Below are positions 7,006 through 8,774 of a stretch of DNA of 64,000 nucleotides, one piece after another (positions within the stretch are counted from its first letter, which is position 1; each line of letters opens with the position of its first letter). The translations under genes were made by a program, and so were the position numbers. The stretch is from assembly GCF_964019385.1 (NCBI RefSeq), contig NC_088654.1, forward strand, positions 26,789,731-26,853,730. The letters are read 5' to 3'. A model generated the notes under the pieces. That model was given only the letters and a program-made list of their open reading frames with translations. It was not told the DNA's origin and did no database searches. Source of the stretch: Sycon ciliatum (Eukaryota > Porifera > Calcarea > Leucosolenida > Sycettidae).

Positions 7006-7323
7006 TGTAGTATCCCTGCCCGACCAATACGGAAGTAGTACGGAACTAATACGGAGCTTTGCCTGATGTATATTTAGTGTATCTCCGTATGTAAGCGTAC
7101 GGCGTCTGCTGCATAAAAGCGGCTGCGCATTTCTGTTTTGAAGAAGATGAGATTTTGATAATAACGAGCTATTCAACCTCCAGGTGTGCACCGGAGAGAA
7201 AGTCAGTTATTTTGCCGTTTCTTCTTTCACTAATAATTATATCTCAGGTGTGTACCTGAAAGAAGTAGAATAAAAGTAATTCTTGTTGATTTCACCGCGC
7301 CTATCACTCGGCTACCCATTACA
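7006..7323 (+). repeat. 5' LTR of the ubiquitin-carrying element
   Basis: 318 bp, TG...CA. It contains a TATA-like ATAAAAG (near 7,115) and an AATAAA signal (near 7,270), which would place promoter and polyadenylation signals in the usual U3/R order. Confidence 0.88.
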
Positions 7324-7416
7324 TTGGTGGCAGCGGTGTATTTTTAAATAAAACAACGTGATTCGACCCCAGACCCCCATGGCTCAACCCGCTGCAGCTC
7401 CGTGCGACGTATTAAG

Positions 7417-7791
7417 ATGAGAATCATGTTTTTTGCCTTCCTGGGCTTGGCCCTGCTTATTAGCTTGCAGCACAGTCAAGGTGCTAGCGTGGATCACCAT
7501 TCCCTCCGCATGGCATCCACTGGAGACTCCGATGGCGATTCCAAGCGACCCGCTACCTACATGTATACTACCGGTGGTGATGGCGAAGCTGATGAGGACG
7601 ACGACATGCAGGCTGCTGACCAAGACAAGGAGGATATTCCCCAAGACCAGCAGCGTTTGATTTTCGCCGGCACGCAGTTGGCAGACGGCCAAACCCTGAG
7701 TGACTACAACGTTCAGCAGGGGTCCACTATTCACTTGGTACTTCACCTCCGTGGTGGAATGCAGATTTTCGTCAACACTCTTCCTGGCTAG
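7417..7791 (+). CDS. Signal peptide + acidic linker + ubiquitin-like fusion, captured host gene
   Basis: The ATG at 7,417 opens a 124-codon ORF. Residues 1-22 are a classical signal peptide with a hydrophobic core. An acidic Gly/Asp-rich stretch follows to about residue 66. The next 50 residues match the C-terminal two thirds of ubiquitin (QDKED, DQQRLIFAG, LSDYN, LHLRGG), followed at once by the first residues of a second ubiquitin (MQIFV), as in polyubiquitin. TAG at 7,789 falls where ubiquitin has Lys11. The frame stays open beyond it to 7,974, with more ubiquitin-like then EF-hand-like sequence. Positions equal to Lys27, 29, 48 and 63 of the first repeat are Gln, Ala, Thr and Gln; Lys33 is kept. 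It has no introns and sits between LTRs, so a processed host transcript was probably captured. Whether it is translated is unknown. Confidence 0.7.
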   Translation: MRIMFFAFLGLALLISLQHSQGASVDHHSLRMASTGDSDGDSKRPATYMYTTGGDGEADEDDDMQAADQDKEDIPQDQQRLIFAGTQLADGQTLSDYNVQQGSTIHLVLHLRGGMQIFVNTLPG

Positions 7792-7974
7792 ACCATCACT
7801 CTTTTCGTCGCGCAAAGCGATGCTATCGACAATGTGAAGACCATGATTCAAGACGAGGATGGAGGTTATTTGTCTGACGCCGAGCTAGCCGCTCTGAGTG
7901 ACCGGCTCAACCAAGATGAAGATAAAACCTGGCTTGCCCTCCGCCGTAGCTCCAGCCGCCGCCATGGTTACTAA
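7792..7974 (+). pseudogene. Read-through continuation of the ubiquitin-like ORF
   Basis: Downstream of the TAG the same frame continues through a recognisable ubiquitin segment (TITL, then VKTMIQDEDG) and switches to a D/E-rich stretch, with a YLSDAELAAL piece resembling an EF-hand loop and helix, and ends in an Arg/Ser-rich tail at TAA 7,972. The stop at 7,789 is a single substitution relative to a Lys codon, so this looks like one longer ORF with a nonsense change. Stop read-through cannot be excluded. Confidence 0.5.
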
Positions 7975-8456
7975 CGCTGATTCTAGGTATGGCATTTTCT
8001 TTCCTCTCTTCCTTCAGTCTCCCTGTTCTTTTCAGTCTTCCTTTATGCGAGTGTGTGAATCCAGTTTAGTTTGGTAGGCGTCTGATCATGGTGAGCCACG
8101 GTTTACCCACCTAACGTGGGACAATGTGTGTGACAACGCCCCTTATAGTTATAGTGTATTCAGTTCGGTTTTTGAACTGCGATGTTCCTGGCAGGTTGTG
8201 CCAGCGTTGTGCAGCAAGAGTGCTGTAGTTTTTCAGGTCCTATTTGGAGGACAGTTCTTTCCCCTTTTGACCCCGAGAGATCGTGTGAACCTGGTGTGCT
8301 TCTACTTTATGATTTGTTATCAGTTCATTTCTTCTGTCTACTCTAAACGTTATCATTTCCGATATAATTTGCCATCTTCCGGTTGACGCTGTGTTCGTAA
8401 CTCTTCACTGATTTTTTGAAAATCACGAGGGCGTGATAATCTGTAGGAAGGGAGGG
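7975..8456 (+). other. 3' untranslated interior of the LTR element with polypurine tract
   Basis: No convincing coding sequence. The segment ends in the polypurine tract just before the 3' LTR, expected for plus-strand priming. Part of it may be the 3' UTR of the captured gene. Confidence 0.6.
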
Positions 8457-8774
8457 TGTAGTATCCCTGCCCGACCAATACGGAAGTAGTACGGAACTAA
8501 TACGGAGCTTTGCCTGATGTATATTTAGTGTATCTCCGTATGTAAGCGTACGGCGTCTGCTGCATAAAAGCGGCTGCGCATTTCTGTTTTGAAGAAGATG
8601 AGATTTTGATAATAATGAGCTATTCAACCTCCAGGTGTGCACCGGAGAGAAAGTCAGTTATTTTGCCGTTTCTTCTTTCACTAATAATTATATCTCAGGT
8701 GTGTACCTGAAAGAAGTAGAATAAAAGTAATTCTTGTTGATTTCACCGCGCCTACAACTCGGCTACCCATTACA
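8457..8774 (+). repeat. 3' LTR of the ubiquitin-carrying element
   Basis: 318 bp, TG...CA; aligned to the 5' LTR I count three substitutions (one near the middle, two adjacent ones near the end) and no indels. It is followed by the CTAC target duplicate. Confidence 0.88.

What the first reader, a model, noticed from the sequence alone, without database searches (positions are those of the whole stretch)
7006..8774. LTR retrotransposon that carries a secreted ubiquitin-like gene instead of gag-pol
Seen: near-identical 318-bp LTRs (three differences), a TGG primer-binding-like site, a polypurine tract, a 4-bp target duplication, and between them an ORF with a signal peptide, an acidic linker, most of one ubiquitin, and the start of a second one joined directly after LHLRGG. 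Known: ubiquitin genes lack signal peptides and ubiquitin acts inside the cell. Inference: a chimeric host transcript (secreted protein plus polyubiquitin) was captured by an LTR element and mobilised recently. Lysines used for chain building (27, 29, 48, 63) are replaced in the first unit, and Lys6 and Lys11 in the second (Asn and stop).
Basis: partly seen in the sequence, partly recalled or inferred. Interest (0 to 1): 0.85.

Follow-up and report, generated by a model that had tools for sequence, protein, structure and literature searches.

The report
Small retrotransposon with captured ubiquitin fragment
A short, recently inserted jumping element carries, in place of its own genes, what look like copied pieces of host genes: the start of a secreted-type protein with one ubiquitin unit set into it, now cut short by a stop codon; capture of host genes by such elements is known, and this looks like a neat example of how it happens.

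Summary
The observation largely holds. Two 318-bp LTRs (3 differences), a CTAC target duplication, a tRNA-type primer site and a polypurine tract bound a 1,769-bp element. It interrupts a LINE-type element; two other LINE copies in the window show the uninterrupted site. No gag-pol was recognised inside. The frame from 7417 (124 aa, TAG, then open to TAA at 7974) has a signal-like start and an acidic stretch. The ubiquitin part is not most of one unit plus the start of another: it is Ub31-76 joined to Ub1-35 (59 of 81 residues identical), a permuted single polyubiquitin unit bounded by an 11-nt near-repeat exactly 76 codons apart. A further tail follows, resembling half of an EF-hand loop. Best explanation: a non-autonomous LTR element that took up secreted-protein and polyubiquitin mRNA by similarity-guided template switching, a described process (PMC5408686, passages). 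Probably now a passenger pseudogene. Loss of 6 of 8 lysines and no radical core change hint at a coding past, but the tests are post hoc and other measures look neutral. No host genome is held, so copies, source genes and selection are untested.

The parts
7002..7005 (.). target-site duplication, CTAC (5' copy)
   Evidence: single CTAC in the two uninterrupted LINE copies
7006..7323 (+). 5' LTR, TG...CA; TATA-like CATAAAAG at 7112, AATAAA at 7269
7325..7338 (+). primer-binding-site-like TGGTGGCAGCGGTG
   Evidence: A PCR primer for the internal region of the Echinococcus ta-TRIM starts with the same 13 letters (TTGGTGGCAGCGG), and that paper gives the ta-TRIM primer site as pairing with a Leu-tRNA over nine bases (PMC4558846 passages); that the primer covers that site is inference. 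A 14-nt match to metazoan tRNA-Leu(UAG/AAG) is recalled, not computed
7379..7420 (+). 13-codon upstream ORF (MAQPAAAPCDVLR) whose stop overlaps the next ATG; perhaps the remnant start of gag
   Evidence: gag origin is a guess without a database match
7417..7791 (+). 124-aa ORF ending in TAG
7417..7482 (+). signal-peptide-like N-terminus (22 aa, cleavage point judged by eye)
   Evidence: hydrophobicity rank 4 of 282; helix 2-20, block pLDDT 80 and 70, in a model of mean pLDDT 50
7483..7620 (+). acidic linker; no Pfam match
   Evidence: 73-aa piece, 0 families at E<=1
7621..7863 (+). permuted polyubiquitin unit: Ub31-76 then Ub1-35, 59 of 81 residues identical; TAG at Ub11 (7789-7791)
7621..7631 (+). 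border repeat, entry copy CAAGACAAGGA
7849..7859 (+). border repeat, exit copy CAAGACGAGGA, 228 nt (76 codons) after the first
7864..7974 (+). 36-codon tail of the frame beyond ubiquitin, to TAA; GYLSDAEL resembles the second half of an EF-hand loop
   Evidence: no Pfam match for the 43-aa piece 7843-7974
7975..8445 (+). 3' internal region, taken as non-coding (flat codon-position GC)
   Evidence: two short ORFs overlapping or inside it have no Pfam match above cutoff
8446..8456 (+). polypurine tract GGAAGGGAGGG
8457..8774 (+). 3' LTR
8775..8778 (.). target-site duplication, CTAC (3' copy)

Best explanation
[quoted passage not shown] Shown: LTR-element anatomy, integration into a LINE with uninterrupted sister sites, no recognised gag-pol, and a frame made of a secreted-type N-terminus, one permuted polyubiquitin unit and a further tail. 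Inferred: the reverse transcriptase of an autonomous relative, in a particle that had also packaged host mRNAs, switched from element RNA to the mRNA of a small secreted protein, and at codons for QDK(E/D) crossed onto the equivalent place in polyubiquitin mRNA. Because polyubiquitin is tandem, it came back at the same place one unit later and so inserted about 76 codons. The switch into ubiquitin may belong to a later cycle. The element then moved by its LTRs, primer site and polypurine tract with proteins supplied in trans. The ubiquitin part differs at 22 of 81 residues but the LTRs at only 3 of 318 bases, so, unless rates differ greatly, most of that change is older than the last jump, in the element lineage or in the source gene. 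The protein is now cut short by TAG and most likely has no function.
For: LTRs, TSD, PBS, PPT; two uninterrupted LINE sites; ubiquitin match; permuted order, 59/81 identity; border near-repeat exactly 228 nt apart; GC by codon position 0.60/0.44/0.59, 0.60/0.31/0.62 and 0.65/0.49/0.57 in the three coding pieces against 0.43/0.45/0.45 in the 3' part (no significance test made); template switching between LTR-element RNA and packaged mRNA at short similarities is described (review PMC5408686, passages).
Against: Single copy; no source gene, relative or transcript seen, and the collections searched are not eukaryotic. The exit border has one codon more than an exact homologous return would give. 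The start of ubiquitin similarity is not sharp (Ub21 to Ub31). The two borders being 76 codons apart follows from tandem ubiquitin by itself; only the coincidence of both switches at that place speaks for the mechanism. The EF-hand reading rests on a short motif. Absence of introns and joins to the element could not be tested.
Confidence: 0.68

Rival explanations
1. The host already had a chimeric secreted ubiquitin-like gene and the element captured its mRNA in one step.
For: The ubiquitin part (22 of 81 residues changed) has diverged far more than the LTRs; 6 of 8 lysines lost (neutral expectation 2.4, P 0.006-0.008) and no radical change at 16 buried positions (expectation 2.6-2.7, P about 0.05), which suits a sequence once kept as protein.
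Against: Both borders lying at the same place of the repeat is explained more simply by switching on a tandem template; radical changes overall (15 of 22), changes at buried positions (2 of 16) and stops (1) are as under neutrality. No such gene was seen, but no eukaryotic genome could be searched.
Confidence: 0.22
2. The frame encodes a working secreted ubiquitin-like protein that the element carries to its own or its host's advantage.
For: Frame with signal-like N-terminus; lysine loss and no radical core change.
Against: TAG at Ub11 removes 25 of the 81 residues of the permuted unit and the tail; single-sequence models give no confident fold (mean pLDDT 50 and 41), though that is weak evidence; no second copy to show constraint.
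Confidence: 0.06
3. Assembly artefact: the internal sequence was mis-joined.
For: The window is an assembly with one gap, at 43801-44000, far from the element.
Against: Exact target duplication, uninterrupted sister sites, no gap in the element and in-frame borders.
Confidence: 0.03

Closest known systems
LTR-mediated retroposition in metazoans (Tan et al. 2016, known here through the review PMC5408686, passages; the paper itself was not held)
   Same: Host mRNA incorporated into LTR-element cDNA by template switching at short similarities
   Different: Here the inserted piece is a permuted single repeat of polyubiquitin inside another coding sequence, and the element has both LTRs, primer site and polypurine tract
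Maize Bs1, linked to retrocopies of three cellular genes (PMC5408686 passage)
   Same: LTR element with sequence from more than one cellular gene
   Different: Plant element, other genes
Animal TRIMs: ta-TRIM of taeniid tapeworms (PMC4558846 passages), PbTRIM of the harvester ant (PMC3532108, listing and start of abstract)
   Same: Small LTR elements without gag-pol; a ta-TRIM primer starts TTGGTGGCAGCGG as here; 4-5 bp duplications
   Different: ta-TRIM has LTRs of about 198 bp, about 590 bp inside, a primer site four bases from the LTR and no ORF above 120 codons; here 318-bp LTRs, 1,133 bp inside, primer site one base from the LTR and captured coding sequence
Secreted ubiquitin extension proteins of cyst nematodes (PMC3595553 passages)
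   Same: A ubiquitin fusion reported as secreted
   Different: By the passages, a ubiquitin protein with a cleavable C-terminal domain delivered to plant cells; here one unit in permuted order, broken by a stop, inside an LTR element

Membership tests
LTR retrotransposon (non-autonomous) | Paired near-identical LTRs with TG...CA ends | tested here: met
   318 bp, 3 differences
LTR retrotransposon (non-autonomous) | Target-site duplication and empty site | tested here: met
   CTAC; two uninterrupted LINE copies in the window
LTR retrotransposon (non-autonomous) | Polypurine tract before the 3' LTR | tested here: met
   8446-8456
LTR retrotransposon (non-autonomous) | Primer site pairing with a host tRNA | tested here: inconclusive
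   TGG... at 7325, 13 letters shared with a ta-TRIM primer; no host tRNA available (no tRNA in the window)
LTR retrotransposon (non-autonomous) | No gag-pol of its own | tested here: met
   Of seven pieces or ORFs from inside the LTRs scanned against Pfam (3, 4), only the main ORF matched above cutoff: ubiquitin and the related Rad60-SLD. Weak matches below cutoff: YukD, E 0.085, and Antimicrobial10, E 0.085. Reading frames
TRIM | Very short LTRs and internal region, no coding sequence (size limits recalled) | tested here: not met
   318-bp LTRs, 1,769 bp in all, captured coding sequence
LTR-mediated chimeric retrocopy | Intronless host mRNA between LTR-element sequences | tested here: inconclusive
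   Ubiquitin part clear; intron loss not testable without the source gene
LTR-mediated chimeric retrocopy | Short similar sequence at the joins | tested here: inconclusive
   CAAGACRAGGA at both ubiquitin borders; the secreted gene's own letters there are unknown and the joins to the element were not located
Ubiquitin | Complete 76-residue unit ending in LRLRGG with chain lysines | tested here: not met
   Permuted, 59/81 identical, LHLRGG, 6 of 8 lysine positions changed, stop at position 11

The most novel reading that the evidence does not exclude
An LTR element lineage has for some time carried and spread a secreted, lysine-poor, circularly permuted ubiquitin-like protein that was kept as protein by selection, and this copy is a recent, freshly broken member.
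Probability: 0.07. Interest if true: 0.75.

Novelty: new member of a known kind. Interest (0 to 1): 0.4.

Why it matters
If the reading is right, it is a snapshot of exon shuffling by reverse transcriptase: a tandem-repeat mRNA lets the enzyme enter and leave at the same short similarity and so put one permuted repeat unit, in frame, into another coding sequence. If other copies exist, the family could show whether such chimeras are ever kept by selection.

Tried and rejected
Chance ORF: rejected by the ubiquitin match (E 5.9e-16) and moderately by run length (4.2% and 1.8% of shuffles). Further LTR copies or solo LTRs in the window: none by blastn at E<=0.1. Copies elsewhere: three exact patterns from the LTR and its borders gave 0 in viral contigs; the 124-aa ORF in genome contigs (bacteria and archaea) gave 34 pattern stretches and 0 relatives; the 73-aa secreted piece in viral contigs gave 9 pattern stretches and 0 relatives. 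A eukaryotic element is not expected in these collections, so these negatives say little. RNA families: 0 in the window at gathering scores, 0 in the element at E<=1. RNA fold of LTR positions 7120-7323: ordinary (z 0.00). Structure: two single-sequence models of low confidence; no fold search was made with them. Four further short ORFs inside the LTRs: no Pfam match above cutoff.

Papers: I found nothing on an LTR element with captured ubiquitin (8 papers, 7 listed; 17; 4), judged from titles and starts of abstracts without opening them, and 0 papers for permuted or secreted polyubiquitin. The library is open-access only, so this is no proof that it is not in print.

Neutrality (three transition rates, 4,000 runs each): buried positions changed 2 of 16 (P 0.14-0.16); radical changes there 0 (P 0.045-0.051); lysines lost 6 of 8 (P 0.006-0.008; a plain hypergeometric gives 0.004); all radical changes 15 of 22 (P 0.46-0.56); stops 1 (mean 1.1). 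Several tests on one sequence, chosen after looking; the list of buried positions and the reference ubiquitin are recalled; and positions 19, 24 and 28 vary among natural ubiquitins (recalled), so some of the 22 differences may be the host's own. Only suggestive.

Full report
What is there. The region 7006-8774 is a complete small LTR element. The LTRs are 318 bp with three differences, two of them adjacent, TG...CA ends, a CATAAAAG box and an AATAAA signal, a CTAC duplication, a primer-site-like stretch one base after the 5' LTR and an 11-base purine tract touching the 3' LTR. It interrupts a LINE-type reverse transcriptase gene (the frame downstream matches RVT_1 at E 5.8e-05, 23.3 bits, below Pfam's cutoff of 29.6). 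The same LINE occurs in the window at about 25.6-28.0 kb and 40.7-43.6 kb, and in both copies the sequence runs through the insertion point with a single CTAC (303 of 321 and 288 of 333 aligned columns identical to the joined flanks). So the element is a real insertion, and by its LTRs a rather recent one.

What it carries. No gag-pol was recognised between the LTRs: of seven pieces or ORFs scanned against Pfam only the main ORF gave matches above cutoff, to ubiquitin and the related Rad60-SLD. A 124-aa ORF begins at 7417, and the same frame is open again after its TAG to a TAA at 7972-7974. It has four parts: a hydrophobic signal-like start (rank 4 of 282 window ORFs), an acidic linker without Pfam match, a ubiquitin stretch, and a 36-residue tail. 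The ubiquitin stretch is Ub31-76 followed without gap by Ub1-35, 59 of 81 residues identical to canonical ubiquitin. It is one polyubiquitin unit read from the middle of one repeat to the middle of the next. Its borders carry nearly the same 11 bases, CAAGACAAGGA at 7621 and CAAGACGAGGA at 7849, exactly 76 codons apart. The spacing follows from ubiquitin being tandem; what is telling is that non-ubiquitin sequence ends and begins again at the same place of the repeat. The left border is the less sharp: a weak similarity reaches back to Ub21 (P = 0.016 in a shuffle test).

Where the ubiquitin sits. The tail begins, just after the exit repeat, with GYLSDAEL, the form of the second half of an EF-hand loop (pattern recalled). 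Shuffles of the 41-residue piece give such a half-loop with glycine anywhere in 1.1% and within the first 13 residues in 0.14% of 20,000; the looser pattern appears in 6.5%. The linker ends with D-Q-D-K at the entry repeat, the usual form of a first half. By inference from a short motif, the receiving gene coded for a small secreted EF-hand-like protein whose QDK(D/E)G-type codons offered the similarity to ubiquitin's QDKEG. No Pfam family supports this (pieces searched apart).

Mechanism. Template switching between LTR-element RNA and packaged cellular mRNA at short similarities is described, with such retrocopies in Drosophila, mosquito, zebrafish and chicken, and maize Bs1 linked to three host genes (review PMC5408686, passages; the primary paper was not held). 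The element fits that process, with the added feature that a tandem template returns the enzyme to the same short similarity one unit later. Movement would use proteins of an autonomous relative, which I did not see in this window.

Is the protein meaningful? The LTRs differ at 3 of 318 sites while the ubiquitin part differs at 22 of 81 residues, so most of that change is probably older than the last jump. Against a neutral simulation with the same number of amino acid changes, lysine loss is high (6 of 8 against 2.4, P 0.006-0.008) and radical core changes are absent (0 against 2.6-2.7, P about 0.05), but changes at buried positions in all (2 of 16), radical changes in all (15 of 22) and stops (1) are what drift would give. 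These are post hoc tests on one sequence. The TAG removes 25 of the 35 residues of the Ub1-35 part and the tail. I read the frame as a passenger that is no longer made in full.

Relation to known things. It has the anatomy of a non-autonomous LTR retrotransposon and looks like a case of captured host mRNA. It is too large and too coding to be filed as a TRIM, though a primer for the internal region of the tapeworm ta-TRIM begins with the same 13 letters as its primer-site region (PMC4558846 passages). It is not a ubiquitin gene in any working sense. I saw no printed report of an LTR element with captured ubiquitin (listings only), nor of permuted or secreted polyubiquitin (0 papers); the library is open-access only.

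Limits. The host is unknown and its genome not held. Copy number, source genes, autonomous partner and selection could not be examined; the collections searched are viral or prokaryotic.

Two calls were added (46, 47): Pfam scans of four further internal ORFs, and the place of the N run and of the repeats near 34-38.7 kb.

Noticed in passing
7022-7100 (and the same in the 3' LTR): The first part of the LTR holds three TACGGA at 11-base spacing (7028, 7039, 7050) and an inverted TCCGTA at 7084, perhaps binding sites for a transcription factor.
   Followed up: partly
7379-7420: A 13-codon upstream ORF overlaps the start of the main ORF by ATGA, an arrangement that could permit re-initiation; its MAQPAAAPC start may be what is left of gag (a guess).
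   Followed up: partly
34013-34579 with 38134-38700, and 35731-36259 with 37629-38156: Two inverted repeats around a Penelope-like 637-aa ORF at 35646-37559 (-) (name recalled; RVT_1 below cutoff): 567 bp at 100% and about 530 bp at 97.7% (the first is cut at the end of the stretch I compared).
   Followed up: partly
12627-12852: About fifteen copies of a 15-bp repeat inside a 263-codon open frame, giving a DVEAQ/ELEAQ-type protein repeat.
   Followed up: no
43801-44000: Run of 200 N, an assembly gap, far from the element.
   Followed up: partly
1.2-2.6 kb, 5.7-10.1 kb, 25.6-28.0 kb, 40.7-43.6 kb: Four copies or part copies of one LINE family, pieces 84-98% identical, so this family amplified rather recently.
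   Followed up: partly
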